NCBI RefSeq assembly: GCF_032854445.1
Contig: NC_088300.1
Coordinates: 76,933,966 to 76,997,965 of the forward strand
Reading direction: 5' to 3'
Origin: Liolophura sinensis
Taxonomy: Eukaryota > Mollusca > Polyplacophora > Chitonida > Chitonidae
Length of the DNA: 64,000 nucleotides
Shown here: positions 1,039-56,357 of the stretch, piece by piece
Position numbering within the stretch: position 1 is the first letter of the stretch
How the letters are laid out: every line of letters starts with the position of its first letter
Made by a program: the position numbers and the translations under genes
Notes under the pieces: generated by a model
What the model was told of the DNA's origin: nothing
The model's input: only the letters and a program-made list of their open reading frames with translations
The model's database searches: none

Positions 1039-4000
1039 GGCGTGGCTTTCCCCGCTATGCACGCCATATGGGGTCATTGGTCGCCAGTCATGGAGCGCAG
1101 CAAACTGACCTCCTTCACTTACGCTGGTTAGTATACCAACAGTAGCTCTCTTACTGGCCTCTGATCATCACTGGTTCTGTGGGAGAACGAGTTATGAAAC
1201 GACCTAATTCTTCTTCCTGAAATATTGTAAATACTGTATACTGGTCGATTGGGTATTGTGAATTCCACAATTCTTCTCAGTTTTGGATTCTATTGTAGAA
1301 TCTCAAATCTTGTTCTGTTTGTATTTGTATTATTTTTATTCAGGAATAAAAGTGATAGAAAGATCCAAGACCATCCTGCGGCTCTGCCTGGTTTCCTCCC
1401 TTCGTAATGCTAGTCGCCATGGTGTAAGTGAAATATTCTTGAGAACGACAGAAAATACAAATCAGAAAAAAAAAATAAATAAATAAAGCACAGTTACTAA
1501 GTTACTTTTGTTCCATGTTGTGTTTCCAGTACTTATTCAACTAGTAGTGTTAGTTGTGAACTTATCACTCAGATGGGATGGAACATTCCATTAGCGACTC
1601 GGGTCCAAGCCAGATTAAACTTTGTTCCCTGGTAATGTAGGAGTACTTTAGTACCATTTTGCCCACAAATCATCATCGCAAATGCAGGGCTGAACTACAT
1701 ACAGTTTAGGTATGAATTACTTCAGGGCGGCAAGGTTTGTTAAGGTATCTCTTGAAAAGAGGTATATAGGGCCTACTTATGTTTAAAATGACCTGGTAAC
1801 GTGGAATGATTTCCTCACTGGGTTCACTTTTTGTATCATGCCTATGAAGCGTTCAGTGTTTCACTTTATCGCCCATTTTGCAGGAAACCCCTGTAAATCA
1901 TACCAACCTCTCACCATTATCGCATCTCTCTGTAAAGAGAACAAGATTTACGAGTTCAAGTTTACTCCTCCATTTCAGTTGTCGTGAAGCTGTCCAAGTG
2001 ATTGCCGTGTTTATTTATTGTATTTATTTGATCCGTGTTTCACGCCGTGCTGAAGAATATTGCATTTATACGACGGAGGTCAGCAATTTGGTGGGAGGAA
2101 ACAGGGCAGAGCATGGGGGAAACCCACGACTATCCGCAGATTGCTTGCAGACTTTCCCACGTATTGCCGGAGAGGAAGCCAGCATGAGCTGGACTTGAAC
2201 TCATAGCGGCCACATTGGTAGGAGGCGCTTAGTCGTCCACTTACGACCACGTCGTCAGTTAGTTCATGTCTGTAACTGTTTTCCTTCTCTTACACGGACA
2301 GGTGCTCAGATTGGTAACGTGATCACGTTTCCTCTGGCCGGAATGCTCTGTCAGTATGGGTTCGCTGGGGGCTGGCCGTCTATATTTTACGTCCTGGGTA
2401 AGTAGTCTCTTACTTCTCCGATTCTTCCGTAAATGGAAAACATGTCAATTTTTATATTCAACCTACCTACATCATATAGATATACCCAGCGTATGTAATC
2501 TTCTGGCATGGTGCATTGTCATATAGGAAGCAAGATAGAATGTCTTTGGTCGTATATTCTCATTTTCGTCAAGAAGCATTTTAATTTAAAGATTCCAAAT
2601 AATACAGCTGCGCCTTCCGTAATGACCTGCTTGGTAGCATCCTGCACATATGCTCAAATGTAAATCTCCAGCCTCGGTAATCGCGACTTCCGACAACGTG
2701 TAACGCTGTACATGAGTAAAAGCTGTAAGCTTGTCTTCACGTCAGTGCTAACGCTCTATACAAATGCCGGCACCATTGTCTGGTGTGACACTGTATATAA
2801 GTATAACATTAAGCGTCATGTCCGACATTCATATACCATTCGTAGTCCGTAAAAGGCGTTCCAAGTCGATAATCGCAAGATCCATTTCCAAAACAACGTT
2901 TAACACTAACTCCCAAAAGCAAAGGTATGTAAGAAATTATACAAATAATTGACCAAACATTTATACAAACATTGACCAAGCACTGTTTCTGTAAGTTTGT
3001 CTTCATGTCTGTGTTAACCCTGCATACAGTAGCGGGTACCATTATCTGGTGTGACACTGTAAATGAGTAAAAGAGCGGTAGAAATCCGTACTACAACAAT
3101 GCACTCTGTGGATTCTATAGTCGTCATATGACTGAAAAGTTATTAAGAACCACCTTAAACCCTAACCCAGTGACTGTTTCTGTAAGCTTGTCTTCATGTC
3201 TGTGCTAACCCTGGTTACAGGAGCCGGCACCATTGTCTGGTTCATCGCCTGGATGCTTCTAGTCACCGACTACCCGCAGGACCATAAGAGAATCTCGGAC
3301 ATCGAGCGTAGATACATTCTTCAGGGATTGAAAGACTCTGTCCAGACTCATAAAAAACACAAGGTACAGTGTTAAGGCTTACATGGCCCATTTAACATAC
3401 ATTATGATTTTGATCTGCCTGATGGGATGGCCTCCATGGCCTATTTGCCATATATCATGATTTTGGTTTACGTGGTGGGTTTGGCCAACATAGCCCATTT
3501 GACATACGTCATGAATTTGGTCTACGTGATGGGTTTGTCCTACATAGCCCATTTGACATACATCATAATTTTGGTCTACGTGATGGGTTTGACCAACATG
3601 GCCCATTTGACATACATCATGCTTTTGGTCTACGTGGTGGGTTTGGCCTGCATGGCCCATTTGACATACATCATGATTTTGGTCTACGTGATGGGTTGGG
3701 CCAACATGGCCCATTTGACATACATCATGCTTTTGGTCTAAGAGTTGGGTTTGTCCTACATAGCCGATTTGGCACACATGGTGGTTTTGCTCACGAAAAA
3801 TGGATTATCCTTTGACCTCTTAACTCAGTTCACAAAAAAACCATAGGCAATGAAACAAACCCATTAAGGAGAACGATCTCGTCTATTCAAAACTCCTCTT
3901 AACAGAAATATTTCACTCCTGAATTTGGACAAGCTTACATTCAGCTCCAGTTATTTATACAGCTTCCACCTTTTGCTGGATATAACAAACAGTCTGTGAC

Positions 4001-9602: not shown

Positions 9603-9993
9603 TTCAGTCGTATTGCTAAAAGAGATAAAAACGTTGTTAAGAATTGTATACGGTGACAAGCAAAATGATCCTAGCCGTAGCTGGTAGAAAACCAACCAAA
9701 GAGTTACACGAGTGCCGTCTGCACTAGTTACCACTGGTGGATGCAAGTCGCTGGCGATATCAAGGAGCAGACTAGAAGACAGGAAGTTGAAAACTCCCGG
9801 TTTAATGTGAACTTTTTGTGGGACATTTGGCTCACGTTCCACTTTGAGGAGCCTAGTCATGGAGTTGGGGACAAAGTAGACATCTGAAGCGTGTGCTGTG
9901 GAGTTAACATTGAATTGCTAAGCCACATATGTTGATACAGGGTTAAGACAAGTACTTTTTAGCTGAGAATGATGTTTATTTTTAGCTGGATAA

Positions 9994-18700: not shown

Positions 18701-21700
18701 CACAACACGGCTGAAATATAGCCAGGTATCTGACAAACCTCTCAGCCTCAAACCCTAATCCCCACAACACGGCTGAAATATAACCAGATATATGACAAAC
18801 CTCTCAGCCTCAAAGCCTCACAACATGGATGAAATATATCTGACAAACCTCTTAGCCTCAAAGCCTCACAACATGGATGAAATATATCTGACAAACCTCT
18901 TAACCTCAAAGCCTCACAACACGGCTGAAATATATCTGACAAACCTCTTAGCCTCAAAGCCTCACAACGCGGCTGAAATACATCTGACAAACCTCAAAGC
19001 CTCACAACATGGATGAAATATATCTGACAAACCTCTTAGCCTCAAAGCTTCACAACATGGCTGAAATATCTGACAAACCTCTTAGCCTCAAAGCCTCGCA
19101 ACACGGCTGAAATATATCTGACAAACCTCTAGCCTCACAAGATGGCTGAAATATAAGAAAAAACCCTTAGCCTCAAAGCCTCACAACATGCTTGAAATAT
19201 ATCTGACAAACCCCTTAGCCTCAAAAGCCTCACAACATGGCTGAAATATATCTGACAAACCTCTTAGCTTCACAACATGGCTGAAATATATCTGACAAAC
19301 CTCTTAGCCTCAAAGCCTCACAACACGGCTGAAATATATCTGACAAACCTCTTAGCCTCAAAGCCTCACAACATGGTTGAAACATAGTCAAAGTGGCATC
19401 CAAGCATAATCATTAAATTAAAGCTGTAGCAAAACTAGCAGGAGTTGTATTTGAGTCTGGAGCCTCAATCGTCATGGGATAATTGGTCATGACAAGTACC
19501 ACAACGCTTTAAGAGAATTAGCTAACAAAGACCAGAGTTGTACGGGAGACCTAGTGCCAAACAAACTACCATATCCCAAATAATTACTACTGTAGACATC
19601 AATTACTTTAAGCAGAGCAAACATAAGCTTCAACACTAATACATGTCACTCCTCAATCAAAACCCATTTCTGCTAAATATGTAATCCAGTTTTATAAATA
19701 ACATAATATTTTATCAAATTCATACCTGTCACTATCTAGGACTGAGTAAAGGCTACATCAAGCATGTTTAAACTTTTATATACATGTAATATAATAAATT
19801 AATAAAAGAGTATTAATATCTTGCTTTCTGGTTAGCTCCACTGTCAACTGGCCTTCCCCTGTGGTAGGTGCCTGGCGAACAACATGACTGCTGTACTTCC
19901 TCACTGTGGGATGGTAGTGCTTCTACAAGAGAGAGTCATGTGGTGTGTTCACCAAATCATCATCATGAAACTCAATCATGGGTTGCTTCAGGGCAGAAAT
20001 AAAGCTTGTAACACTTTAAAGTGATCAACAAACTGAATTAAATTTTGAGTAAGTAAATTGCTTGGCGTAGTGACAAAAGAAAACCTATTAAACTTCTTGG
20101 CAAAACATTTCTTTTGATGACATTGTCAACATGTTTAACTGGTACACAAATATCAATCAATCAATAAATCACCATTCCTATTACCGTTAACATGTTGAGC
20201 TCCCAGAGGGCGGTGTTTTGGGCGTGGCAATGTTCAGGGTCATCCAGTTCTGGCAGGTACACACCACTTCCTTGCATCTCATTATCATAGAGCAAGTCAC
20301 TCCTGGAATATGTCTATGCATGCAGAAAAAGATACAAACACACAGCACCTGTAATTTTTATTTGGGGTTTATTGTCCTGAGTATACATTTGTATTCAAGG
20401 CTACTGTAAATCTTCATACTTTTCACCCACTAAAGCGCTTTTTCAGGGGAAATTATGCCTGCAAATATCATGAAAATCACACCAAAATTGATTTGTTTGT
20501 GTCATTAATGGTGCAAACTTCATAAAACTTATTATTTCTCTACACTCCATAGTTCTCCCAGAATGTTTCTAATGTGGTTACACACATGGTTGAACAGGTA
20601 GAAAAATCAGTTTTTCTCTTTAGAGTGGATATAACTTACATCTACAAAAAAAAATACATAATATACTACAGCGATCTCTTTATAACATGATTTTTAAATT
20701 ATGCTTTGCAAATTTACACGGTTCAGATTTACAAGAACTTCATCAGGGCTAGCATACCTCCACTCCCTTACCTGTATCAATGTTTTACACATGGCTAGTG
20801 TAGCAATGGAACCGTGAGGTAGAAGCTGAAGACATAATGTACACAGCCTTTTGATGTATGCCAAGATTCTGTGTTCTGATATCTGAAAACAGAACCATTC
20901 AAGACTATATATGCACACTTATACAAAGTACAGAAATTAATGCTTTGCAATGTTACCTTACAAAATGAGAACTGTGCTTTCATGACATTTTATTCTGATT
21001 TTTGCCCTGGGATTTATGACAAAAAAACACTGCATAGAGTTTATGATGGTGATCACCTATGTTCACACTGACACCCATATTAGACTTGAAGAAATCCTTT
21101 CACTCTGGTTTTTACCTTTCATGCACATTAAGGCACAGACTCACCTGTCTCTTCCTTCTGCTGACAACAACATCTAAGCAGTCGAGTATAAGAGCAATAT
21201 CCTCAATGCTGCTACCTGCAACAAGAAAAACATATCAGCAGTCAGCAAGTCAGCAAGTGGAATATATTTTTTTCCTGGACCCCATTAGGACCCCATGTGG
21301 TCTATATTAAATGCAGATTGGTCCTTTGCTGATGTTTATTGAACCTAATAGGTTCTACACCTGGTATTGTTTCCTGTCCTATCATATGATTTACCTGCAT
21401 GAACCCTGAGTAACACATTGTACAGGTGTTTATTGAAACTAATAGGTTCTACACTTGGTACTGTTTCTTATCCTATCATGTCATTTACCTGCATGAACCC
21501 TGAGTATCACATTGTACAGGTGTTTATTAAAACTAATAGGTTCTACACTTGGTACTGTTTCTTATCCTATCATGTCATTTACCTGCATGAACCCTGAGTA
21601 TCACATTGGACAGGTGTTTATTAAACCTAATAGGTTCTACACTTGGTACTGTTTCTTATCCTATCATGTCATTTACCTGCATGAACCCTGAGTATCACAT

Positions 21701-24700
21701 TGGACAGGTGTTTATTAAAACTAATAGGTTCTACACTTGGTACTGTTTCTTATCCTATCATGTCATTTACCTGCATGAACTCCGAGTAGCACCATGTACA
21801 GGTGTTTATTAAAACTAATAGGTTCTACACTTGGTACTGTTTCTTATTCTACCATGTGATTTACCTGCAGGAACCTTGAGTAACACATTGTACAGGTGTT
21901 TATTGAACCTAACAGGTTCTACACTTGGTACTGTTTCTTATCCTACCATGTGATTTACCTGCAGGAACCCTGAGTAACACATTGTACAGGTGTTTATTAA
22001 AACTAATAGGTTCTACACTTGGTACTGTTTCTTATCCTACCATGTGATTTACCTGCATGAACCTTGAGTAACACATTGGACAGGTGTTTATTAAACCCAA
22101 TAGGTTCTACACTTGGTACTGTTTATTATCCTATCATGTCATTTACCTGCAGGAACCCTGAGTAACACCTTGTACAGGTGTTTATTGAAACCAATAGGTT
22201 CTACACCTGGTACTGTTCCTTATCCTACCATGTGATTTACCTGTATGAACCTTGAGTAACACATTGGACAGGTGTTTATTAAACCTAATAGGTTCTATAC
22301 TTGATACTGTTTCTTATCCTACCATGTGATTTACCTGTATGAACCTTGAGTAACACATTGGACAGGTGTTTATTAAACCTAATAGGTTCTACACTTGGTA
22401 CTGTTTCTTATCCTACCATGTGATTTACCTGTATGAACCTTGAGTAACACATTGGACAGGTGTTTATTAAACCTAATAGGTTCTATACTTGATACTGTTT
22501 CTTATCCTACCATGTGATTTACCTGTATGAACCTTGAGTAACACATTGGACAGGTGTTTATTAAACCCAATAGGTTCTACACTTGGTACTGTTTATTATC
22601 CTATCATGTCATTTACCTGCAGGAACCCTGAGTAACACATTGTACAGGTGTTTATTGAAACCAATAGGTTCTACACCTGGTACTGTTTCTTATCCTACCA
22701 TGTGATTTACCTGCATGAACCTTGAGTAATACGCCGTACAGGTGCTTGTAGAACCTAATGGGGTCTATATTAAGAGCAGATCCCTGCCCAGTCAGGATGG
22801 TGAATGCTGTCAGTACGCAGTGAAGTGTCTCTCGATAACTCAGTCTCTGAAAGACATGTATCAAATAATTGCTCCGAATTGAGTTGCTCTGAATACTTGA
22901 ATCTATGAAGAATAAGGAGATTCACTATAAACATGTTACACAATTAACTCTTGGAAATTGACTCATGTCTCATGAGTTGATCGCCCACAATATTACTTCA
23001 CAACACTTTATTGTTGAAACAGTGCAATCATCTGGGATAGTAAAATATAGATTTAATTTCTCGAGGCTTGGACATCAGTGAAACCAGTGCAATTTGTTTC
23101 ATACACAAACTTCCCAGCCCAGCTATTACACCTTCACACTGAAACCATGTACATCAGATTCCACTGCATCAGGATGTTAACCTACCTCTGAGTCTATCAG
23201 CTGATTAAGAACTTCAAAGAGGTCATCAAAGAATTCTACATTTATCAGATGTGAAAACCTGTAAAAAAAATATTAATAATATGAATAATTTGCATTTGTG
23301 CACATATTTATCAAATCCACAAAACAGATTAAAATTGCATCTAAGAGTAGACATGACCATTATCTTAAAAATGTTCAAACTTTCATTATAACTTTATATG
23401 AAAACATCTGAACAATGTGCTTACCAAAGATTTGAGAGAAAAAGATATACATGAAACAAGAGCACATAACGGAGGGTGGTTCAGCCAGACAATCCAAAGG
23501 GGAGGGTAAATAACTCACTTAGCAAGTCCCTCTAACACTGACGGGAGCAATGGAGGTTTCTTCTCAGATTTCAATATTCTAAAGTATGTCAAGAAGACTG
23601 CCTGGATGACTTCTGTATGCTGAGAAGAAAACGAAGAAAGTGTTATGAACTTTATACCAGAAACAATACCTCAGTTGATGAGTAGCAGAGTTTTGAGTTC
23701 ACACTCTTTTATCACTGAAGGTAAAAAACACCCTACTGTACCATGTGACCTATCAGAAATGTTAGGAAACTATATTTGATTACATGTACTGTAACATGGT
23801 CAATTGAAAAAAGTTTCACAAAAAATTATTTGGAGAAGATGAATGCCGGAGGTAAGTGGTGTCATTTGTTTATCCAGAACATGGTGAGATGGTGATCACT
23901 TTTTGACAAGTCACAAGATAAAGAATGATTCTTTTTACCTTTTGCAACAAAAGAGTTCGAACTCAAAAGTATTGAAAATGAAAGACTTTGTCTAACTTTT
24001 TCTCCTTCCTGATGACTCAAATTTTTCTCATAACATGGATCTGTCAGTTCATACAGGCACTTTTAATCGAATAATTGAAAACTGTTTCTCAAGTGTTTGA
24101 TTGATATGAAACTTTTCACCCTTGAATGGAACTGACGACTGTTCATGCCTCTCATTTCCATACAGTACCATGTGCAAGGAGGAAATCATTTTAGTACCAG
24201 TATGTGACTAAATACCATAAAGATTGGAAAACATCAATGCTTAAACAACTTACTTCTCTTCAATTTTCAAAAAATGGTATAAGGTTGTTTTTGTGTTGTT
24301 TGGTATTTCATACTTTTTGACAGGAGATTATCATACTCTTAATATGATAAGGCCATGTTGATTAAGTCATCCCTGACTTACCAGCTTTAACTGTGCCTTT
24401 TTATTCTCTGTGGCTTTGGTTTCTAACAGTTCCTTCTCCAGCTTTTCCATCTGTTTTTGTCTCTAAGGAATTAAACATGTGTGAAAAAAAGATAGTCTTT
24501 TCCATTTCTGAAAGTGAAACTCCACTGAATTTATTATTATGATTGGTTGTTTCTCAGGAATATTATATTTACATGATGGTAGTCTTGATTAATAAGTAAA
24601 AGATACCCAGCAAAGCCGAGAGGGAATCTGCAACGTTGACGAGGAGGGGATACCTTGCAGAACTAACAGGAAATCTCCAAACTTTGCCAGGTGGAAGATA

Positions 24701-27700
24701 CCGGACAGGGCTTAGAAGAAATCTGCAGTCTTGGTTGGGTGGAGGATATCTGGCAGAGCTAAGAAGAAATCCGCAGTCTTAGTCAGGTGGAGGATACCTG
24801 GCCAAGCTAAGAGGAAATCTGCAGTCTTGGTCAGGTGGAGGACACCTGGCAGAGTTAAGAAGAAATCTGCAGTCTTGGTAAGGTGGAGGACACCTGGCAG
24901 AGCTAAGAAAAAATCTGCAGTCTTGGTCAGGTGGAGGATACCTGATAGAGCTAAGAAGAAATCTGCAGTCTTGGTTAGGTGGAGGATACCTGGCAGACCT
25001 AAGAAAAAATCTGCAGTCTTAGTCAGGTGGAGGATACCTGGCAAAGCTAAGAGGAAATCTACAGTCTTGGTAAGGTGGAGGATACCTGGAACAGCTCACA
25101 TGCATCAAAATACAGACACCAGAACATTCCCTACAATATGTAAGGTGATCTTTTCTGCGGACACTGCATGGCAAACCTTCTCTCTCGCCTTTATCCACTC
25201 TAATGCATGATTAGACATACATTTCTAGCAACTTTCATTTCATGACACAGTAACACATGACCATCTACCTTCCTTTCTCGTCTGGACCATTTTAACATTT
25301 TTTCCTTTCTCATCAGCTTCTTCTGTGTATCATCTTCCCCTTTGAACACTTCTTTGATTCTCAGTGACAGGAATGTATCCAACACCTGACAAACAGAAAG
25401 GCTCTGACAAATATACTTACAAAGGTATGTCATTTTGATTGGGATCTCCTTGGCTCAGGGGGTTAAACCTCTGGCTCGCAGGGACTATCAGATTGCATGT
25501 TCAATCCTGCTCCATGTGCATCATCAACAGCACGTTAAAGTCAGGAATCTAGTACTTCAGTCCAGGCACTCCAGTTTGTTACACACACAAACCTGGCCCA
25601 CAACAACTTCAGTCCAGGCACTCCAGTTTGTTACACACATAAACCTGACCCACAACAACTTCAGTCCAGGCACTCCAGTTTGTTACACACACAAACCTGG
25701 CCCACAACAACTTCAGTCCAGGCACTCCAGTTTGTTACACACACAAACCTGGCCCACAATAACTTCAGTCCAGGCACTCCAGTCTGTTACACACACAAAC
25801 CTGGCCTACAACAACTTCAGTCCAGGCAATCTAGTTTGTTACACACACAAACCTGGCCCACAACAACTTCAGTCCAGGCAATCTAGTTTGTTACACGCAC
25901 AAACCTGGCCCACAACAACTTCAGTCCATGCACTCCAGTTTGTTACACACACAAACCTGGCCCACAATAACTTCAGTCCAGGCAATCCAGTTTGTTACAC
26001 GCACAAACCTGGCCCACAACAACTTCAGTCCAGGCACTCTAGTTTGTTACACACACAAACCTGGCCCACAACGTCATGAGTGAAACATTCTTTAGAACAG
26101 CAACAATCAAATAAATAAAGAAAAAAAGTTTACGTTCACTTATTTGCAAACAGTACATTACACCACAAGAAATTTCTGGAAAGAGTTTCATACCTTTCTA
26201 TCAACGTTGTTGTCTCTGTTTTTCAAAAGTCTCGAAATTAATCGCACAATCTGCAAAGATGAAGAAAATCAAGACCAAAAGTAATGCACCTCCCACACTA
26301 TTTTCAAAAATTCAATTTTAAGCAAATAATTACCAGTTCTACCTGTTGTTACTACATGTACTGATAAAATTTAACTTTAGGGCCATACTGTGAAAATTAC
26401 ATGTACATGTATTTCGCTCAGATCATTTTTTTCACATTAAGCATTCACATGTATATATGATGTCTTGTATGCATGCTTACTTCCTATGCATACTTCCTGT
26501 GTAAGTGGGGTCTATTGACAGCAGCTTAGCATCACACAGGCCATAGCAGAGATTTTTGGCAAAAATCTATACTTGCAAAGCAAGAAAAGCTTAAATTATG
26601 CCTTTCAGTACTCATACCTGTACTATTTATGGCCTGTTTTATGATTCTAAAGTTTTTTGGAACTTTTATTACCCATTTTGAACAGGAACATGTGCACAGA
26701 CGAGGCTGATATTTTGTGTAAGGTCATTATTTGGGTTAATATAAAATAATACCAAAAAAAATTGCTTTGTTTTGGGATGGTCAGTTTCTTGCCAAAAATC
26801 CCTGATGAAGCATATTTAACTACACTGTACAAACAATCTGTAAGTGCTTAGCCATTAAAGCCAAATGCTTATGCAGCACCAATCAAAATGCAAAGTAACC
26901 CTTTGCTGATAGTCTACCTCTAAAGACAACTCTCCTGATTTGTCTGTTTTAAACACAGTCTTCACGGCTTCACATATGGGATCAGAGATCTGGGCAAACA
27001 AGAAAGGAGACCTAACACATAATCATATAATGATCGGTGTTTTATGCTATACTCAAGAATATTTCGCTAATAAAACGGCAGGCCGCATCATGGTGGGAGG
27101 AAGCAGGAGAGAGCCCGTGGGAAATCCACGACCATCTGCAAGTGGCTGACAGACCTTCCCACATACAGCCAAAGAGGAAGCCAGTAGTCACAGATAGTCT
27201 GGTTCACAATAGTTACAAACACATAGTTATTGCTGAAGATATACATCTGATATACTAGAACTAACATACGCAGAAAATCCAAGGTCTTTACATACTATAA
27301 AGATTGAATTATCATCTTTAATCTTAAAGAAAAGTGAACAAGCATAAGGTCTACATAAGCAGCTTCCGTGAAGAGAACAGATTTGAATTACAAATATTTC
27401 ACATATGAGTGGCACAATGTAAAGCAACTCAAAAAGCTACAGTATGATCTCATTATGTGGTCTGACAACTTACACATAAGTGAAATTATAAGAGTTATGA
27501 TATAACTACATGGTTAAATCTTTTACAGATCAGGGGAATACAAACAGCTGTGACATTATTACCTGGTCTGATTTCTTACAGATCAGGGGATAAGGACAGC
27601 TTTGACATTATTACCTGGTCTGATTTCTTACAGATCAGGGGAATACGAACAGCTGTGACATTATTACCTGGCCTGATTTCTTACAGATCAGGGGATAAGG

Positions 27701-43300: not shown

Positions 43301-46300
43301 AAATTGCAGCAGTTGAAGTTGTACCAGCCAAGATTGTTTACATCTGTAGGGGGAGAGTCTCGATGCTTGGGCCCAGCTAAAATAAACACCAAGGCAGACC
43401 CAAGAGATTTGACTCCGGCTAAAGCAAAAAGCAAGACAGAATCTCGAGGTTTGACTCCAGCTAAAGTAAACTCCAAGGCAGAGTCACAAGAGTTGACTTC
43501 AGAAAAAGTAAACACCAAGGAGGTACTGGGTATGACACCAGGTATTTACAGTGACACAAAGCTGTTCAATTCATGGAATATGGACCCATTTATTTGTTTA
43601 ACATTTAACATTAGGATTACAGTATACCAGTCCAGAAAAAGTTTTCAAGTCATTCCCACCAGGTGTTGTCCAGTAGTCTTCATCAATTGTTGTAGTCCTC
43701 CACGTTCTGGTGGTTAGCATTCTAGCACAGTGCAAGGACCTAGAAGCCTCTCACTAATTAGATTGCTGTGAGTTTAAGTCCAGTTCGTATGTGAGAGAGG
43801 GTCTGTTAGCAACCTGCAGATGGTCGTGGGTTTCCCTCAGGCTTTGCCCAGTTTCCTCCATACCATAATGCTGGCCGCCATCATATAAGTGAAAAATAAA
43901 TCAGTTGTTGAATGAAGAAATAATTGACAGACTAGTATATTTCTATGGAATGAAATAAAACAAAAAACTTGTGGTTTTAGCACCCAAAGAAGTCTCTGGA
44001 ATGGAAGATCGAACAAGGGCTGAGTTTGCTGGGAAATACACCACTCCAATAGGGCTAATGGTAAGTCAGTATGTGTACACTGGTGATAACTTGTAACACC
44101 TCGTCAGATTTTGTACAACAAAATTGCGTAAATCAGATCAAAGGGTTAATTATAAGAAGTTGTGAATTATCGACAGTACACAGTAGACAGACATGAAGAC
44201 TTTGCTTGGGAAGCAGTCGCAGTGGTCTTTCTCCAACCCTACACATATCACTGATTTCCTTTTCATGAGCAGGGCATACAATCATAAACCACATCACTCT
44301 GATTTTTGGAGGTGAACAATTCCCACAACCAAAAGGGTTCATCATCTGTCTTTTCCTCAATCTTACAGGAATACTTTGTGGAATCTCCCATGCAAGAAAA
44401 GCCCCTGATGGTTTTGCACCTAATTCATAACCTTGGTTACCGTCAGGTGCTCTGCTTTACCAATTCCGTGGAGGCAACTCACAGGTAATTGTTTATACAT
44501 TGATAATCAACATGGTTCAACGTGTTCTCTTTGTAATGATTGATTTGAATATTTATGTAAGATGTTATAGTGTGTATATTCCCCTGTTACCATACACGCA
44601 ACGAATAGAATCACAGCTGTGGGCAAACGGTCAGTTTCTGCTGGCTCGTGGCAATGATTGACTTGCATGTTGACCCAAGCCTCCTTCACAGAATATGCAT
44701 GTAATATTCATGTAACATGTGCATGTAATGAGTTGTGTTATAGAGTCAGTGAAATGATTTACAGCTCATGTACTATCAGACTTGCATCACCTAATTGTCC
44801 TCTCTAGGTTGTACCTTTTGATGAAGATGACGGGTGGGATACAGGTCAAGGAATTCTCTTCCAAACTTCATGTCTCCAAACGCAAAAGGATTCTCGAACA
44901 GTTTAAAGCAGGCAAAATAGACTTGTGAGTACAAAGTTGTCATTTGTGTTCTTAACATTAGGTGTACCAAAATAGGGTACATCAAAATGAGCATGAGCGA
45001 ACTGTGAGAACTGCCATGTATATTAAGGTGGTTGCCCTTTGGTGACAAGGTCATACACGGTCTTGTGTTTAATCCCATTCTCAGGCAAGGATTTTCTAGA
45101 TTCCTCCGCTTCCAATACTCTGTGCCTCCTGTCAACAGTGTATTTTTGTGTGGTCTTAAACGTAAACTTGGCCCTCTCTAGTATGACCTGAATGGTTTTC
45201 TCCAAACTCCACCACCCACAAAACAGGCTGCCATGGCATAAGTGAGAAGTCCTTGAGAATGGCATTAATGAACAGTCAAGCAAATAATTGTTATTGCTGC
45301 CATTTTTTTAGCCATCATGGGATACTGTTGTTTCAGACTGATTTGCTCAGATGCCATGGCAAGAGGCATGGATGTGGAGAATGTAAAGTATGTGATCTCA
45401 TACGACTCTCCTCTCTTCATCAAGACTTACATCCACAGAGTTGGCAGGACAGCTAGGGCTGGCAAGCTGGGTACAGCCTTCACCCTGTTACAGAAGAAAG
45501 AGGTAAGCGGTCACTACCATAGCCCGAGGCATCGGTCTAAGGATTGCTTATGTATACTGAAACGAGGGGACCGCTAGCTACCCTTAGCTCCAGAGTTATG
45601 TGGACCCGATTCCTGTATAATGCTTACAAAGAGCTACTCTCTCGTTCAATTCCGATGCATGCACGTTAGATTTGTCCATATAGCATGGCAATTCTGCAAG
45701 CTAAAATATTTATGCACATTTTGCCACAATCGCTACTTGCCTTTACATCAGCATTCTCCTGTAAATCTTAGCCAGAGTTGAAAATAGGCTTGTATTTAGC
45801 ACATCGTTGCGCGCTGCCATGTTTTTAAAACCTGGGTCAGCCACAGTCGGCCTTTCCGTAAGACACACCCCCATGTAACGCGGCTAGTTGTCTGTCAGAA
45901 CTGACAGTCAGCTCATCAAAACATAGAGACATGAAAGGTCAACCACGCATGCACATCGAGCACCAACCCGATTTATTAGGTCACAATGTCTATATAACAT
46001 GTGAGCATAAGTCACAACTGTGAATTATCTTGGATTTACCGGCTTTAATGGCTACAGAATGTGGCAAAAACTGGCAGAGGAACAGACAATGACTTGGTGA
46101 ACATAATTTATTGGAGTTTTGCCCGGTAAATGCATGTATTGGTTCATTTTGCACACATTTTTCTAAGCTGTCTTTAAATACCACTATTTTAGCCTGGAAC
46201 ACTCCTCGGCTATGATCTGCGCCTAACCCCATATTAAAAGATCACAGCCAAGATCCTTGGCTGTCACTACCTATATAAATAGGGCTTTGAACAGACCTCA

Positions 46301-47389: not shown

Positions 47390-47975
47390 TGTTTCTGTAT
47401 CCAAGATTCAGGAGGTTCCAAGGTTTACCAGTTATGGCTTAGTAATGATAAAGCCAAACTACAAAATGTCAAATATGGATGTTGTCAGAAGTTGACTGTA
47501 TAAAGTTGTACAAAATACCGATTTGACCTTCATAGCATTTATTCAAGCATGTTTGCATGCCTCTGTGGCTACCTCATAGCCGACAATATGCCTGTAAAAA
47601 TATTTGCAATGAAATTATTTATATTAACTGCACATGATCCAAGATTTCACAATATTTATTCTCATTGAAAAAATTATTCATTTCATGGGATATACCAGTG
47701 TTGAAGATGTTTTTTCTTCACTTCTGACCACAGTAACAAATACTACAGAAACATTTATTGTCACATGAATCATTAATACATGCATTTATACAATACTGCA
47801 TTTGCAGCTCTGAGTGCTCATTCTTCCCAAGTTATCACATCCATCCCAATTCACCTGTATACAAGCAGTGCACATACCTAGACAGCGGCATGATTTCACG
47901 AGGGAACTTCCACCCAATCATTCACATCCACTGTGCAGAGGAAGAGAATCCATGTGTAGCCTAGGACACTGACTA
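47390..47975. other. convergent 3' ends of DDX51 and TAF8
   Basis: The two stop codons face each other 586 bases apart. No gene between them. I see no canonical aataaa on the DDX51 strand in this stretch, whereas the TAF8 strand has several, so the two 3' untranslated regions may overlap. Confidence 0.6.
47754..47759 (-). terminator. candidate poly(A) signal of TAF8
   Basis: Plus strand tttatt, that is aataaa on the TAF8 strand, 217 bases past the TAF8 stop. Further copies at about 47541 and 47657. Confidence 0.5.
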
Positions 47976-50900
47976 TCACCTTATAGACTTCTTCCTGACC
48001 TTGGGCATTTTAACAGGTCGGAGATAAGGGTTATCAATGTCCGTATCATTAGAGTCTGCTCCCGCGTCACCTTCCACTGTTGGGGGAGGAAGAGGGGTAA
48101 CTGTAGGTTCATGATTCTGTAAGTGCATCTTGGTGATCTCCTGAATGTCACTGTGTTCTAATGTATCCAGCTCCTGGTCCTTTGGAAGGAGGGCAGCTAA
48201 GTAAGGTCGTGGAGAAGGGCGGACGGCTATCACTACAACAGTAAAACAGGCCTTCACAAGCTGGACTGTCCTCAACTATAGCTCTGTCACTACACCACTA
48301 AAACAGGCCTTCACAAGCTGGACTGTCCTCAACTACAGCTCTGTCACTACAACACTAAAACAGGCCTTCACAAGCTGGACTGTCCTCAACTATAGCTCTG
48401 TCACTACAACACTACAACACTAAAACAGGCCTTCACAAGCTGGACTGTCCTCAACTATAGCTCTGTCACTACAACACTAAAACAGGCCTTCACAAGCTGG
48501 ACTGTCCTCAACTACAGCCCTGTCACTACACCACTAAAACAGGCCTTCACAAGCTGGACTGTCCTCAACTACAGCTCTGTCACTACAACACTAAAACAGG
48601 CCTTCACAAGCTGGACTGTCCTCAACCACAGCTCTGTCACTACAACACTAAAACAGACCTTCACAAGCTGGACTGTCCTCAACGACAGCTCTGTCACTAC
48701 ACCACTAAAACAGGCCTTCACAAGCTGGACTGTCCTCAACTACAGCTCTGTCACTACAACCCTTAAACAGGCCTTCACAAGCTGGACTGTCCTCAACGAC
48801 AGCTCTGTCACTACACCACTAAAACAGGCCTTCACAAGCTGGACTGTCCTCAACTACAGCTCTGTCACTACAACACTAAAACAGGCCTTCACAAGCTGGA
48901 CTGTCCTCAACCACAGCTCTGTCACTACAACACTAAAACAGACCTTCACAAGCTGGACTGTCCTCAACGACAGCTCTGTCACTACACCACTAAAACAGGC
49001 CTTCACAAGCTGGACTGTCCTAAACTACAGCTCTGTCACTACAACACCACTAAAACAGACCTTCACAAGCTGCACTGTCCTCAACTACAGCTCTGTCACT
49101 ACACCACTAAAACAGGCCTCCACAAGCTGGACTGTCCTCAACTACAGCTCTGTCACTACAACACTAAAACAGGCCTTCACAAGCTGGACTGTCCTCAACT
49201 ACAGCTCTGTCACTACACCACTAAAACAGGCCTTCACAAGCTTGACTGTCCTCAACTACAGCTCTGTCACTACACCACTAAAACAGGCCTTCACAAGCTT
49301 GACTGTCCTCAACTACAGCTCTGTCACTACACCACTCAAACAGACCTTCTCACAAGCTGGACTGTCCTCAACTACAGCTCTGTCACTACAACACTAAAAC
49401 AGGCCTTCTCACAAGCTGGACGGTCCTCAACTACAGCTCTGTCAATACAACACTAAACAGGCCTTCACAAGCTGGACTGTCCTCAACTACAGCTCTGTCA
49501 CTACACCACTAAAACAGGCCTTCACAGGCTGGACTGTCCTCAACTACAGCACTCAAACAGACCTTCTCACAAGCTGGACGGTCCTCAACAACAGCTCTGT
49601 CACTACACCACTAAAACAGGCCTTCACAAGCTTGACTGTCCTCAGCTACAGTTCTGTCACTACAACACTAAAACAGGCCTTCACAAGCTTGACTGTCCTC
49701 AACTACAGCTCTGTCACTACACCACTAAAACAGGCCTTCACAAGCTGAACTGTCCTCAACTACAGCTCTGTCACTACACCACTAAAACAGGCCTTCACAA
49801 GCTGGACTGTCCTCAACTACAGCTCTGTCACTACAACACTAAAACAGGCCTTCACAAGCTGGACTGTCCTCAACTATAGCTCTGTCACTACAACACTAAA
49901 ACACACCTTCACAAGCTGGACTGTCCTCAACTATAGCTCTGTCACTACAACACTAAAACAGGCCTTCACAAACTGGAATGTCCTCAACTACAGCTTTGTC
50001 ACTACAACACTTAAACAGGCCTTCACAAGCTGGACTGTCCTCAACTATAGCTCTGTCACTACACCACTAAAACAGGCCTTCACAAGCTGGACTGTCCTCA
50101 ACTATAGCTCTGTCACTACAACACTAAAACAGGCCTTCACAAGCTGGACTGTCCTCAACTACAGCCCTGTCACTACACCACTAAAACAGGCCTTCACAAG
50201 CTGGACTGTCCTCAACTACAGCTCTGTCACTACAACACTTAAACAGGCCTTCACAAGCTGGACTGTCCTCAACTATAGCTCTGTCACTACACCACTAAAA
50301 CAGGCCTTCACAAGCTGGACGGTCCTTAACTACAGCTCTGTCAATACACCACTAAAACAGGCCTTCACAAGCTGGACTGTCAACTACAGATCTGTCAACA
50401 ACACCACTAAAACAGAACTTCACAAGCTGGACTGTCCTCAACTACAGCTCTGTCACTACAACACTAAAACAGGCCTTCACAAGCTGGACTGTCCTCAACT
50501 ACAGCTCTGTCACTACAACACTAAAACAGGCCTTCACAAGCTGGACTGTCCTCAACTACAGCTCTGTCACTACACCACTAAAACAGGCCTTCACAAGCTT
50601 GACTGTCCTCAACTACAGCTCTGTCACTACACCACTAAAACAGGCCTTCACAAGCTGGACTGTCCTCAACAACAGCTCTGTCACTACAACACTAAAACAG
50701 GCCTTCACAAGCTGGACTGTCAACTACAGCTCTGTCACTACAACACTCAAACAGACCTTCTCACAAGCTGGACGGTCCTCAACTACAGCTCTGTCAATAC
50801 AACACTAAAACAGGCCTTCACAAGCTGGACTGTCCTCAACTACAGCTCTGTCACTACACCACTAAAACAGGCCTTCACAGGCTGGACTGTCCTCAACTAC

Positions 50901-53900
50901 AGCACTCAAACAGACCTTCTCACAAGCTGGACGGTCCTCAACAACAGCTCTGTCACTACACCACTAAAACAGGCCTTCACAAGCTTGACTGTCCTCAACT
51001 ACAGTTCTGTCACTACAACACTAAAACAGGCCTTCACAAGCTTGACTGTCCTCAACTACAGCTCTGTCACTACACCACTAAAACAGGCCTTCACAAGCTG
51101 GACTGTCCTCAACTACAGCTCTGTCACTACACCACTAAAACAGGCCTTCACAAGCTGGACTGTCCTCAACTATAGCTCTGTCACTACAACACTAAAACAC
51201 ACCTTCACAAGCTGGACTGTCCTCAACTATAGCTCTGTCACTACAACACTAAAACAGGCCTTCACAAACTGGACTGTCCTCAACTATAGCTCTGTTACTA
51301 CACCACTAAAACAGACCTTGTCACAAGCTGGACTCTGCTTTCTGAGCTGTAAAATTTCACAGCAAATAACTGCTGATATAATATTCGATTCTTGATATTT
51401 TTATGGTGCAGCTCCAGTTTCCTTCAAGCATGAACCAGATTGTCATCATACATAAAGTGAAAAATTCTTAAATATGGCATTAAATACCAAGAAAATATAT
51501 AAATATATTCTGGAAAACAAAATTAATTTAGAGGGCTTTGTTGGCCGTTTAAAGAAGTTGTTTGTAGCCCCACGAAGAATGAATGTATACTGTATTAAGT
51601 TTTTCAGGCCTAAATTGAACTTCAAAATTAAAGTCAAGATAGGAAAATTCTGAATCTGCAATGCTACAAGGTTACATGTCTTTTGTCAAGTAAGTTTTTA
51701 GCTGTGTCCTCGACATTAGATGAGCCTCAACTCCAGATTCTAAAAGTTCGTGCTCAGACTACCACCACCACAGGTGCACTGGACATGGATATACTCACAT
51801 GGATATAAGGACACGTCATCTTTACACAGACTCTGTGTTTCCCCGGTTTTAGCAATAAACCGTGTCAAGGCTCTCTCTACATCTCTCTTTTGTGAGGCTG
51901 CCTTCTCTCTGATAATCTGGTATTCATTCACTGGCTGTTTGTGGGTCTGAAACAGGCGTGAAAGTGGTAAAGGTATTCAACTTTTGCTCTAATATAGCCC
52001 ACAGCCAGTATCACCCATTAAACTGAATGTCTGACAAAGCAAAGAAACAGGCTCTATGAAATGTGTACTGGTGAACTGTAATAATGCTTTGTACAGCTAC
52101 TTGTAGCAAACATTTTTGCCTTGTTAACATACCCTACATCTGAGAAGATGCAGACATGCTCAAGAACATAAGCTATGCGCAGGTAATAAAAAAAAAACAC
52201 TTTTAATTCGTCTTATTTATTTGATTGTTGTTTTACTCCTGTTCTCGAGAATAGTTTCACTTATACGATGGTGGCCAGCATCCACACGATACTGGCAGAC
52301 TTTCTCACATATGACTGAAGAGGAAGCCAGCATAAGCTGGACAGCGACAACAATGGTGAGAGGCTCATAGGTCAATGTGCTACACTAGCATGCTAACCAC
52401 CAGGCCACATAGGCCCCCTAGGCTTGAAATCTGACTTACCAGGGGCCTGATATGGGTGCATATGTGTGTCAGGAAATCTGACCAACCAGAGGTCTGATAT
52501 AGGTGCATGCTGTATGTGGGTGTCTGGAATCTGATCTACCAGAGGTTTGATATAGGTGTGTGTGGGAATCTGACCTACAAGAGGCCTGATATGGGTGTGT
52601 GTGGGAATCTGACCTACAAGAGGCCTGATATAGGTGAGTGTGGTAATCTCACTCACCTACAAGAGGCTTTGATATAGGTATGTGTGGGAATCTAACCTAC
52701 CAGAGGCCTGATATAGGTGTGTGTGGTAATCTCACCTACCAGAGGCTTGATATAGGTATGTGTGGGAATCTGACCTACCAGAGCCTCAATATAGGTATGT
52801 TTGTGGGAATCTGACCTACCAGAGGCTTGATACAGGTGTACGTGGGAATCTGACCTACCAGAGGCCTGATATAGGTGTGTGTGGGAATCTGACCTACAAG
52901 AGGCCTGATATAGGTGAGTGTGGTAATCTCACCTACCAGAGGCTTTGATATAGGTATGTGTGGGAATCTAACCTATCAGAGGCCTGATATAGGTGTGTGT
53001 GGTAATCTCACCTACCAGAGGCTTGATATAGGTATGTGTGGGAATCTGACCTACCAGAGCCTTGATATAGGTATGTTTGTGGGAATCTGACCTACCAGAG
53101 GCTTGATACAGGTGTACGTGGGAATCTGACCTACCAGAGGCCTGATATAGGTGTGTGTGGGAATCTGACCTACAAGAGGCCTGATATAGGTGAGTGTGTT
53201 AATCTCACCTACCAGAGGCTTTGATATAGGTGTGTGTGGGAATCTGACCTACAAGAGGCCTGATATAGGTGTGTGTGGTAATCTCACCAACCAGAGGTTT
53301 GATATAGGTATGTGTGGTAATCTCACCTACCAGAGACTTTGATATAGGTGTACGTGGGAATCTAACCTACCAGAGGCCTGATATAGGTGTGTGTGGGAAT
53401 CTGACCTACCAGAGGCCTGATATAGGTGTGTGTGTGGGAATCTGACCTACCAGAGGCCTGATATAGGTGTATGTGTGGGAATCCTGACCTACCAGAGGCC
53501 TGATATAGGTGTGTGTGAGAATCTTATCTATCAGAGGCCTGATATCAAAGTTTGCACAAGGTTGAACCCAGATCGTTTGAGCTATATGTAACCATAAAGC
53601 GAAATTCTTAAATTTGCAAACTTATTTATTTCCTCAAAATGGCTGTTGAGGTGGTGGAAATCCCCGAGTGTACTAGTACTGCAGCAAAGTCCCCTGCTAA
53701 TACATACGCCCGCCATTATACAGGTCCAGGGGAATCCTCAAATAGCGCAACAATGGCTAACTAGGGAGGTGGGGGAGCACAGCATGAACAGTGATCAGAG
53801 GCATCAGGAAACCACTACTAAACGTATCTGTCATGCATATGCTGTGAATCACATTGTTTTCAAGGCTACACCACCATGTGTTCTATTCCTGAGTATTTTG

Positions 53901-56357
53901 GGATTTTTTGATGAATTTTGTAGTGTGGGTAATATCCAACTTTGGTTTATGAAGCCATCACCACCTCTGATAAAATGGTTTTGCCCTCAGGGTGAAATGA
54001 TACAACCCCTGACATAAGTGGATGTCAACAATAACCATTCCATGGAAAGTTGTAGACTAGTGAAGGTTTAAATTCAGTTCAAATTAATTGTCACCTTTCT
54101 CCGCTTACTGCTAGCCCACAATACATGACTGATGGATGCCGCAAGCTAGCATGCATTGTGTTCCTGACCTACCAGAGGATTGATATAGGTATATGTGGAA
54201 ATCTGACCTACCAGAGGCCTGATATAGGTGTATGTGTGGGAATCTGACCTACCAGAGGCCTGATATAGGTGTATGTGTGGGAATCTGACCTACCAGAGGC
54301 CTGATACAGGTGTGTATGGGAATCTGACCTACCAGAGGCCTCATATAGGTGTGTGTGTGGGAACCTGACCTACCAGGGACCTGGTATTAGTGAGAGTGTC
54401 CAGGAATCTGACATACGAGGCCCGATATACATATGTGCCTTGGAATCTAAAATACTATAGGTGTGTTAGTATGGAAACCCGACCTACCAGAGGCTTGATA
54501 TAGGTGTGTGTGGGAATCTGATCTACCAGAGACCGGATATATAGGTAGATGTGTGAGTTAAAATTTGACAGACCCTGGTGTGATCAAGTCCTGGCATAAG
54601 TGTACACATAAGTGTAAGAGGCTTGGCATCTGACATACAGATATACATTCATGCAGCTGTGGGAGACCAGAAATCTGACCTACAGAGTCCTAATGTATGT
54701 GTGGGAGTCTGGAAATGCTGGAAGATGATCAGGTATGTGTGATGATGAGATTTCTTCTCCCCAACCTGCAGGGTTTTAGGATTGCCACAGGTGGAAGCAT
54801 GAACAGCTGAAAATGCAAAAAAAAGTCACATTAACAAGTATAGGTAACAAACTTGGAGCAAGTCTTGCTCCTTAGCTCCTTGTTAAGTATCTGACAAAAC
54901 ATGACAGATCTGTCATATGTACATATACGTGACCTCTAATAACATCTGTTCATTGTATTAGTGCTAACAAGTAATCAACATATTTAGCTGATATACAGAA
55001 CATTGTATAATGTACTCACGTGGCAGAAAGACACTTTTGTTAGCCCTTTTAGCATGTGCAGCTATACCATCAATATTAATTCCTGAAATACAAAGTTGAA
55101 ACAAATGGTGTGCACACAAAAACTTGTCATCATTCATATACATGTAGCAAAATGCAAGTTTCACAAGGCAAATGAAGAGATGCCATGACACCAACCAATT
55201 TATTTCACAGGTTTACTTACCTGCCTAAAACAAAAGTTCATCATGTGCTACTTAATTGGTTTAGTATAATACTATTACCCATCACTAAATCAAAAACAGC
55301 CTTGCACATGTTTGGTACAGAGCAGATAAGGTTAGCAACTCGAATTCATCATTAAAACTGAAGATTACATGAGCCTGCAATTTGACCAGAGTAAACAGTA
55401 AGCATGGTGTGTCAACAAAAGTATAAATCTTACTAAATAAAAGTGAGTTCAATCTTTTGGGCCTGGGTACTATAGAGATGATGGTGAACTAAGTTTCAGG
55501 TTTAATACAAACCATACATGTTCATAATGCGTTTGCCAGAGAAGTTAACTCTGTAATATTTTGATATGTGTGACTGTTGTCCTTTTAAATCTTTCTTCTA
55601 AACAATATATTTTTTTTTTGAGAAATGAAAAAGATCTTTACTCTGGATAGGGTAAATCATGAATTAAAAGCCTACCATACCCATATCAATAAGTGCCAGC
55701 ACAACATCACTCAGCATCACACCTGTTCTCCCAGACAACTCGCTGTAACACCTTGAAGAAGCGCCCAGCCTCTGTCAGAACTAAACGCAGGTTTATTGTT
55801 AATCATAAGCACCAAAATATAATTACTGTCAACTGGATGTCACAAACATATTGAAAACATAATCACACTAGCCAACCCAATGACTTGTGGTCTGGTGAAA
55901 GTTGATTTTAGGGTGTAACTTTCCAGAGCTATGTTATACTTACTTCATTGAGAACATTTAAATACTAGTAAGCTACGTTTCCATTACTTCAAGTCTGCTC
56001 AATCCTGGGATACAATATGTTGCGCTGAAAACAAGGGCGAGCTTCATATCCCTGTCATATTGTATCCCAGCTTAACCATTTCACAAATGCCAACATGACC
56101 ATCACACTGGTTCTAAAAAAAAAAAACACCAGAAGCCTAATATAGGATAAGAATGCATCCATGAAATGTTGGCTGTCACTAAATGTAGGCTAACTTCAGA
56201 AAAAAAAATAAAACCTACAACTCTGAAGAGCTTCTGTCAACGTCTCCAGCACCGAGTCGTCCGCCGCTCCAAATCCTACTTCGGAACACAGCGCACCTAC
56301 GGCCACCTTCAGTGCCTTTCGACGGCTTGCAAAGTAGTTGTTGGTTTCTGTTGCCAT
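47976..56357 (-). CDS. TAF8: TAF8, TFIID subunit 8 (six exons, apparent frame breaks)
   Basis: TFIID component; its histone fold pairs with TAF10 and its C-terminus carries a nuclear import signal. Minus-strand exons: 56357-56219 (start MATETNNYFASRRKALKVAV), 55780-55681, 55082-55020, exon 4 from 54806 (or internal acceptor 54765) to 54684, 51946-51799, 48232-47976. Exon 2 encodes FLTEAGRFFK in one frame and CYSELSGRTGVMLSDVVLAL in another; one base too many near 55751 explains this. Exon 4 matches the family in two frames ('NPKTLQVGEKK', then 'HIPDHLPAFPDSHTYIR'), and its donor (CT|GTAGGT) is one base short of the frame of exon 5. Exons 1, 3, 5 and 6 are clean: exon 5 has 'EYQIIREKAASQKRDVERAL' and 'TRFIAKTGETQSLCKDDVS', exon 6 ends 'DNPYLRPVKMPKVRKKSIR'. 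Expected length is about 275 residues. Sequencing errors or a damaged gene are both possible. Confidence 0.88.
48233..51345 (-). repeat. 57-bp array made from the TAF8 intron 5 / exon 6 junction, about 54 units
   Basis: On the gene strand each unit reads 'cagcttgtgaaggcctgttt', 'tagtgttgtag', 'tgacagagctgtagttgagg', 'acagtc'. The real acceptor reads 'cagcttgtgaaggcctgttt', 'tactgttgtag' | 'tgatagccg'. So each unit repeats the pyrimidine stretch, the acceptor TTGTAG and the first exon bases, and the array abuts the real exon at 48232. Larger blocks are duplicated: about 49430-49960 recurs at about 50775-51290, and a five-unit block at about 48600-48700 recurs near 48890-48990. Open frames on the plus strand are artefacts of the 57-bp period. 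Confidence 0.95.
52205..52425 (-). mobile_element. tRNA-derived SINE
   Basis: Plus strand: tail 'cttatttatttgattgttgt', body 'tcacttatacgatggtggcc', head side 'gaagccagcataagctggac' and 'catgctaaccaccaggccac'. A central part of the body is deleted. It lies in TAF8 intron 4 and touches the start of the 39-bp array. Confidence 0.8.
52430..53545 (-). repeat. about 39-bp array made from the TAF8 exon 4 / intron 4 junction (block 1)
   Basis: On the gene strand each unit reads 'cacacacctatatcaggcct', 'ctggtaggtcagattccc'. The exon 4 end reads 'cacacatacattaggactct', 'gtaggtcagatttcc'. Every unit thus carries a copy of the last exon bases and the donor GTAGGT. A seven-unit block of about 275 bp is duplicated (52660-52935 and 52937-53215). 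Confidence 0.92.
53546..54160. other. about 600-bp unrelated insert splitting the TAF8 minisatellite
   Basis: Repeat units stop at 'gaggcctgatatcaaag' and resume at 'ctgacctaccagaggattga'. The insert is unique in the window, includes 'ggctgttgaggtggtggaaa' and 'ccccgagtgtactagtactg', and has a 123-codon open frame with no recognised domain. I could not find convincing terminal repeats or a target duplication. A non-autonomous transposon is one possibility. Confidence 0.5.
54161..54683 (-). repeat. about 39-bp array made from the TAF8 exon 4 junction (block 2)
   Basis: Continues block 1 with the same unit to about 54550, then decays through diverged copies ('gaaacccgacctaccagagg', 'atctgacatacagatataca') until the exon 4 end at 54684. 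The copy at the exon has 'ctacagagtcc' where the units have 'ctaccagaggcc', one C fewer. Confidence 0.88.

What the first reader, a model, noticed from the sequence alone, without database searches (positions are those of the whole stretch)
2690..54765. A general tendency: tandem growth seeded at exon-intron borders in three neighbouring genes
Five exon edges in SLC17, NOC3L and TAF8 are repeated next to themselves, three on the donor and two on the acceptor side. Minisatellites in introns are common, but units containing the exon edge with AG|GT or the acceptor are not what random seeding predicts. Tandem duplication of AGGT-containing exon pieces is a known proposal for intron gain; here it happens at existing introns. 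Repair slippage at R-loops or splicing-linked breaks is a possible cause (my inference).
Basis: inference. Interest (0 to 1): 0.85.

Follow-up and report, generated by a model that had tools for sequence, protein, structure and literature searches.

The report
Minisatellites born on exon edges
In this chiton genome, which is rich in short tandem repeats, some repeat arrays grew out of pieces of DNA that straddle an exon edge, leaving rows of intact-looking spare splice sites beside the real one; it recurs in other genes, but in the sample taken only about two to three times as often as random placement would give.

Summary
Four of the five claimed edges are real. NOC3L exon 7 and exon 14 donors are repeated 9 and 14 times as exon tail plus donor. 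TAF8 exon 4 donor and SLC17 exon 3 acceptor have diverged copies. At TAF8 exon 6 the array merely stops at the acceptor. In the window alone this is no more than chance: 2 TRF arrays against 0.94 expected. I therefore fetched 28 further 10-kb pieces of the same genome, chosen by DEAD or WD40 exons and not by repeats. Of 68 arrays, 7 straddle an edge of 199 annotated exons against 3.16 expected (p 0.04); with 20 or more exonic bases, 7 against 2.34 (p 0.01). A local null gives 3.91 (p 0.10) and 2.93 (p 0.03). So the pattern extends to unrelated genes, with a suggestive two- to threefold excess. Best explanation: short tandem duplications arise everywhere in a minisatellite-rich genome; those across one exon edge are tolerated because an outer copy keeps one intact edge. 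In seven donor arrays, 78 of 80 spare donors keep GT, and in six a stop codon comes before the first spare donor. AGGT-driven seeding is not supported; R-loops are untestable here. Closest precedent: the human IFI6 minisatellite. The assembly matches the chiton Liolophura japonica.

The parts
27523..28035 (-). 53-bp array on the NOC3L exon 7 donor; unit = about 47 exonic bases plus GTAAGA/GTAATA; 9 intronic copies, all with GT
   Evidence: only the home array returned
27985..28104 (-). NOC3L exon 7 (40 codons), phase 0, proximal donor CAG|GTAAGA at 27985
   Evidence: alignment to human NOC3L; position printed
21333..22767 (-). 94-bp array on the NOC3L exon 14 donor; unit = about 57 exonic plus 37 intronic bases; 14 intronic copies, all with GT
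   Evidence: only the home array returned
22711..22846 (-). NOC3L exon 14, donor GCAG|GTAAATC
54683..54765 (-). TAF8 exon 4; its tail and donor region resemble the 39-41-bp array units
54164..54541 (-). 41-bp array related to the TAF8 exon 4 donor region (diverged)
   Evidence: score 49, best of 500 shuffles 28
52526..53545 (-). 39-bp array with a unit like that of 54164-54541, further into the intron
   Evidence: units compared by eye
3221..3363 (+). SLC17 exon 3
2723..2784 (+). first upstream copy of the SLC17 exon 3 acceptor with about 20 exonic bases
2982..3050 (+). second upstream copy of the SLC17 exon 3 acceptor with about 20 exonic bases
3376..3779 (+). 54-bp array starting 12 bases after the SLC17 exon 3 donor; no exonic content (abuts only)
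48230..51334 (-). 57-bp array that ends on the TAF8 exon 6 acceptor; 3 exonic bases by TRF, at most 6 by eye
47976..48232 (-). TAF8 exon 6 (last coding exon, with stop codon)
   Evidence: open frame, match, acceptor position; my scripts used 47983 as its low end, which is not a tested edge
43373..43520 (+). in-frame 42-bp repeat inside a coding exon of the DEAD-box helicase (contrast case, not an edge)

Best explanation
These are locally born minisatellites. Short tandem duplications of about 40-140 bp arise throughout this genome and then grow by copy-number change. When the duplicated segment spans an exon edge, one outer copy still has the whole exon edge with a working splice site, so the protein is unchanged and the array is tolerated in the intron as a ladder of spare splice sites. 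Splicing is expected to use the site next to the exon body; use of a downstream donor would usually add a stop codon. The rate at exon edges is at most two to three times the uniform expectation. Shown: the anatomy, recurrence in other genes, intact spare sites, stops on read-through, and the size of the excess in one sample; local origin as far as the genome search reaches. Inferred: neutrality, proximal-site use, and the growth mechanism.
For: Exon parts of the units belong to conserved proteins, so the exon gave rise to the repeat. Searches with NOC3L array pieces returned only the home locus. Arrays fill 14% of 280 kb of mostly genic sequence at 68 arrays, so hits on edges are expected. 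Edge arrays in the sample: donors L005, L010, L012, L013, L028; acceptors L002, L008, L021, L003/L029; whole exon L016. In seven donor arrays 78 of 80 intronic copies keep GT; read-through in the protein frame reaches a stop after 11-107 nt, in 6 of 7 before the first spare donor. Mean exon-to-copy identity runs from about 0.79 to 1.0 between arrays, so births look spread in time. Uniform seeding predicts 3.16 straddling arrays against 7 seen.
Against: The sample shows more edge arrays than uniform seeding predicts: p 0.04 or 0.01 with the whole-piece null, 0.10 or 0.03 with the local null, and 7 of 100 Pfam-defined edges against 0.98 expected. No RNA evidence that the proximal site is used. 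At TAF8 exon 4 I found no donor that keeps the frame in this assembly, so at one edge the real site may be damaged.
Confidence: 0.68

Rival explanations
1. Exon edges are true hot spots for tandem duplication, for example through R-loops, polymerase pausing or breaks linked to splicing, so arrays are seeded there several times more often than elsewhere.
For: Sample: 7 of 100 Pfam-defined edges (6 arrays) against 0.98 expected; none of 4000 permutations reached 7. All curated edges: 7 arrays against 2.34 with 20 or more exonic bases, p 0.010. Over 190 edges, 8 arrays straddle while 3 and 2 have their near end 0-49 and 50-99 bases into the intron.
Against: With the local null p is 0.10 or 0.03. 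Outside the Pfam exons there is no excess (1 array on 298 edges, about 2.2 expected by subtraction). In one search the 100-199 base bin holds 11 and later 100-base bins 2 to 14, so arrays are not gathered near edges as such. The scan with candidate exons gave 11 against 8.4 at threshold 10, p 0.21, and 3 against 0.65 at threshold 20, p 0.03 (its null is inflated by false exons). The window alone: 2 against 0.94.
Confidence: 0.25
2. The spare splice sites are kept by selection, as buffers against splice-site mutation or as poison sites that tune expression.
For: Spare sites are intact: 78 of 80 donor copies keep GT; read-through in the protein frame meets a stop in all 7 donor arrays.
Against: Array units stay alike through homogenisation alone, including in non-edge arrays. 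Copy sites are not consistently weaker or stronger than the real one.
Confidence: 0.05
3. Tandem duplication of AGGT-containing exonic DNA created these introns (Rogers model).
For: Donor units carry exonic sequence with AG|GT or a near match. By eye, the exonic breakpoints in L012 and L013 look somewhat donor-like.
Against: By eye, units carry 6 to about 65 bases of intron, arrays lie on one side of an intron, and breakpoint overlap in L005 and L010 is about 2 bases without AGGT.
Confidence: 0.02

Closest known systems
[quoted passage not shown] 1995, known here from a citing passage and reference in PMC4526556; the paper itself was not read)
   Same: By its title and the citing passage, a minisatellite whose repeat units serve as splice donor sites; that it sits on the exon 2 edge is recalled.
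   Different: There, use of downstream repeat units as donors in mRNA is reported; here no RNA was available. Here the pattern recurs in several genes and on the acceptor side too.
Variable internal tandem repeats at exon-intron boundaries of human genes in segmental duplications (De Grassi and Ciccarelli 2009, PMC2812944; passages including the abstract, and section 6)
   Same: Minisatellite-type units at exon-intron boundaries that change gene structure; also a systematic screen.
   Different: That work reports 27 intron modifications in duplicated human genes, with novel introns; here the exon keeps its edge and the array stays in an intron.
[quoted passage not shown] passages read)
   Same: Tandem duplication places an extra splice site next to the old one.
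   Different: Here the units contain intronic sequence and no new intron is evident.

Membership tests
Minisatellite providing multiple splice sites (IFI6 type) | Tandem units of minisatellite length that include an exon-intron boundary | tested here: met
   NOC3L exons 7 and 14 and sample cases
Minisatellite providing multiple splice sites (IFI6 type) | Units carry an intact splice site | tested here: met
   GT in 78 of 80 donor copies (seven arrays); AG in 28 of 33 acceptor copies of L002, L008, L021; SLC17 only 1 of 2
Minisatellite providing multiple splice sites (IFI6 type) | More than one unit is used as a splice site in mRNA | not testable with these tools
   no RNA reads held
AGGT tandem-duplication intron gain | Duplicated segment is exonic and the new intron lies between the two copies | tested here: not met
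   units hold intron sequence and the array is on one side of the intron (read)
AGGT tandem-duplication intron gain | Duplication junction at AGGT | tested here: inconclusive
   only two low-copy arrays readable, about 2 shared bases (AT, TG), not AGGT; no statistical test on the rest (by eye)
Dispersed satellite or mobile repeat inserted at the edge | Unit found at other places in the genome | tested here: not met
   only the home locus returned for both NOC3L arrays; other arrays not searched, and the tool can miss matches

The most novel reading that the evidence does not exclude
In this chiton, exon-intron junctions are a recurrent mutational hot spot for minisatellite birth on both the donor and acceptor side, so that a few percent of all exon edges carry ladders of up to about thirty intact decoy splice sites, a natural experiment on how the spliceosome picks one site among many equals.
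Probability: 0.27. Interest if true: 0.75.

Novelty: new variant of a known kind. Interest (0 to 1): 0.5.

Why it matters
In the sample 8 of 398 annotated edges are straddled by a TRF array (5 donors and 3 acceptors, one array counted in both). If that holds, this genome offers many independent rows of near-identical donor or acceptor sites next to one real exon. Proximal-site preference, decay of wrongly spliced messages, and the tolerance of coding genes to tandem duplication could then be measured directly. If the excess holds in the full genome it would also point to a mutational hot spot at exon edges, which bears on how introns grow and arise.

Tried and rejected
A codon-usage score alone found only 19 of 48 window exons and was replaced by a gene finder with splice-site matrices. 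With each gene left out of training it found 63 of 96 true edges while predicting 66 exons for 48 (penalty 7). Trained on all four genes, 38 of its 42 predicted exons overlap one of the 48 true ones (penalty 11), but that figure is in-sample. At that setting it predicts 242 exons on both strands of the sample and overlaps 45 of the 50 Pfam exons.

A scan of arrays against all candidate exons showed no clear excess in the sample (11 against 8.4 at threshold 10; 4 against 3.6 at 14; 3 against 0.65 at 20, p 0.03). I rate it low because random seeds inside exons meet false internal splice sites, but it stands against a large excess.

Polar growth from the exon end was considered because the first NOC3L exon 7 copy is nearest to the exon (0.98 against a mean of 0.88 for the rest); most other arrays do not show it, so it was dropped.

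Donor-like sequence at the exonic breakpoint (seen by eye in L012, L013) was considered as a sign of AGGT pairing; the two low-copy arrays do not show it, and I made no statistical test.

L008 exon 5490-5570 was added by hand because an array straddles it; counts with it (8 against 3.17, p 0.016) are biased, and the counts I rely on leave it out. Its PDB match is only E 0.99, so its identity rests on the open frame, its place in a DEAD-box gene and recall. L028 (TRF stops 7 bases short of the edge) and L003/L029 (the exon lies beyond the piece) are real by sequence but not in the counts. L029's protein match is weak (E 0.012; the name DDX47 is recalled). L016 is a threefold tandem copy of a whole exon and counts as one array; its acceptor was moved by hand. 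One of 51 Pfam hits inside the pieces (in L009) gave no acceptor and was left out. The 200 exons are 50 Pfam exons, the hand-added one, and gene-finder exons on the anchor gene's strand with at least 45 bases and score of at least -1; other predictions were dropped.

Full report
WHAT WAS CHECKED. The finding says that five exon edges in SLC17, NOC3L and TAF8 are repeated next to themselves and that this is more than random. I built gene models first. PDB sequence searches with translations identify NOC3L (E 2.9e-74), TAF8 (E 4e-40), a sialin-like SLC17 transporter (E 1.2e-90 over 321 of 324 letters) and a DEAD-box helicase (DDX51 is a recalled name). Exon borders were placed by splice motifs and reading frame: 48 exons, 90 internal edges.

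THE FIVE EDGES. Comparing the last or first 45 exonic bases of all 90 edges with 2.5 kb on either side gives five edges at score 30 or more. At that score 97 of 300 random non-exonic 45-mers also have a nearby copy, because the window is full of arrays, and 2 of 38 exon-interior windows do. Two edges are clear: NOC3L exon 7 donor (27985; 45 of 45 identical; 53-bp array 27523-28035) and NOC3L exon 14 donor (22711; 94-bp array 21333-22767). Two are weaker but real: SLC17 exon 3 acceptor (3221), with copies at 2723-2784 and 2982-3050, and TAF8 exon 4 donor (54683), whose tail plus donor matches the 54164-54541 array with score 49 against a maximum of 28 in 500 shuffles. The fifth high scorer is a 42-bp in-frame repeat inside a helicase coding exon. 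So four of five stand.

LOCAL ORIGIN. Genome searches with pieces of the two NOC3L arrays returned only the home array; the tool warns that it skips common words and that a missing match does not show absence. The exonic parts belong to an exon that aligns to human NOC3L, so the exon is the source and the repeat the product.

IS IT MORE THAN CHANCE? The rows (score 80 or more, period 15 or more) add up to about 14.6 kb of the 64-kb window. Collapsing each array to one unit and placing it anywhere not wholly inside an exon, 0.94 straddling arrays are expected among 90 edges and 2 are seen by TRF, p 0.24. The window alone does not show an excess.

INDEPENDENT SAMPLE. Pfam DEAD and WD40 hits were listed. 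Going down each list I took 14 DEAD and 14 WD40 loci, skipping hits in long open frames (over about 200 residues for DEAD, about 130 for WD40) and second hits of one locus, and fetched 10 kb around each before seeing any of the sequence (280,000 letters). TRF finds 68 arrays covering 39,279 bp, 14%. Of 51 Pfam hits inside the pieces, 50 exons were delimited automatically, one acceptor corrected by hand: 100 edges. A gene finder trained on the window added others on the anchor strand, 200 exons with one added by hand, 199 without it.

RESULT. On the 100 Pfam-defined edges, 7 edges (6 arrays) are straddled with at least 12 exonic and 6 intronic bases; 0.98 are expected and none of 4000 permutations reached 7. 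On all 398 edges, 7 arrays are seen against 3.16 expected (Poisson p 0.042); asking 20 exonic bases, 7 against 2.34 (p 0.010); restricting random places to 1.5 kb around each array, 3.91 (p 0.10) and 2.93 (p 0.03). Other TRF thresholds give similar ratios. Donor and acceptor edges give 5 and 3 arrays against 1.60 each, the whole-exon array counted in both. The Pfam exons thus carry the excess; the other 298 edges carry one array, where about 2.2 would be expected by subtraction. Over 190 edges (window plus Pfam exons) 8 arrays straddle, 3 have their near end 0-49 and 2 have it 50-99 bases into the intron, 11 at 100-199 and 2 to 14 per later 100-base bin up to 1.5 kb. A different scan, against all candidate exons, gave no clear excess. 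I read this as a suggestive two- to threefold excess, not as proof.

ANATOMY OF THE SAMPLE CASES. Donor side: L005 (eIF4A-like, E 1.8e-11; 45-bp unit, two intronic copies), L010 (98 bp, one intronic copy), L012 (39 bp; the unit is about 33 exonic bases plus GTGAGT), L013 (65 bp, 32 intronic copies), L028 (WD40 exon; dynein assembly factor with WDR repeats is the second match, E 1.7e-79; 88 bp). Acceptor side: L002 (47 bp), L008 (85 bp), L021 (98 bp), L003/L029 (81 bp; the exon was seen after fetching 2 kb more). L016 is a 141-bp unit with a whole WD40 exon and both its splice sites, three times. Names of genes beyond the cited matches are recalled.

WHAT THE COPIES CARRY. In seven donor arrays (two in the window, five in the sample) 78 of 80 intronic copies have GT. 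By the splice matrix (trained on window donors, the two NOC3L ones included) the copies average within about one unit of the real donor in five arrays and about two units weaker in NOC3L exon 7 and L028. Reading on past the real donor in the protein frame meets a stop after 11 to 107 nt, in six of seven before the first spare donor; L005 has a second open frame, not the protein's, in which two spare donors come first. In the acceptor arrays L002, L008 and L021, 28 of 33 copies have AG; in SLC17 1 of 2. Of the units I read by eye, donors hold at least 6 intronic bases and acceptors about 20 or more, enough for a working site; with so few cases this is consistent with a filter by splicing but does not prove one. 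Exon-to-copy identity differs between arrays (means about 0.79 in NOC3L exon 14 and 0.97-1.0 in L005), so births look to be of different ages.

HOW IT MOST LIKELY WORKS. A tandem duplication of some 40-140 bp that spans one exon edge leaves exon body, working edge, then one extra edge in the intron. The protein is unchanged if the edge next to the exon body is used. The array then grows like any other minisatellite here. Shown: structure, intact copies, stops on read-through, counts in one sample. Inferred: neutral tolerance, use of the proximal site, slippage or unequal exchange as growth. The AGGT proposal is not supported by the two readable junctions, and the units contain intron; R-loops remain untested.

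ORGANISM. The paper on the chiton Liolophura japonica (PMC11068029, passages read) gives 632 scaffolds, a longest of 96,433,062 and one of 19,479,325 bases; the held assembly has 632 contigs, and its C1 and C5 have exactly these lengths. The total is 609,495,693 in the paper and 609,464,459 here. That assembly used HiFi reads (mean 8.3 kb), longer than these arrays, so an assembly artefact is unlikely. The word tandem does not occur in that paper's main text.

PRIOR WORK. A human IFI6 minisatellite provides several splice donors (Turri et al. 1995, seen only as cited in PMC4526556). Tandem repeats at exon-intron boundaries of duplicated human genes were screened in PMC2812944 (passages and section 6). 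AGGT duplication as intron source is discussed in PMC4974935 (passages). Apart from these, the listings of nine literature searches (the longer lists were cut) showed no genome-wide count of exon-edge minisatellites and nothing on them in chitons; the library holds only open-licence papers.

Noticed in passing
window 54660-54700 (minus strand): TAF8 exon 4 reads ACTCTGTAGGTCAG where array units read CTCTGGTAGGTCAG; I found no donor there that keeps the frame into exon 5 in this assembly. Assembly error, allele or real damage is open.
   Followed up: partly
window 43373-43520: A DEAD-box helicase coding exon holds an in-frame 42-bp repeat (14 residues, about 3.5 copies).
   Followed up: no
L016 1632-2069: A whole WD40 exon with both splice sites stands three times in tandem (141-bp unit); by eye the second copy also looks open.
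   Followed up: partly
L001-L028 and window: Minisatellite-like arrays cover 14% of the sample and about 23% of the window, while the genome paper's repeat table gives 0.08% for simple repeats, microsatellites and RNA together and 14.04% unclassified.
   Followed up: partly
window 19825-19922 (minus strand): NOC3L exon 18 seems to end in a GC donor (AAA|GCAAGA); placed by eye, not tested.
   Followed up: no
window 4520-4680: A stretch resembling a SINE-like repeat (recalled as common in molluscs) lies in an SLC17 intron.
   Followed up: no
L015 5120, L013 8759-9122, L009 2378-2501: Arrays that abut a splice site within a few bases without holding exon sequence, like the TAF8 exon 6 case.
   Followed up: partly
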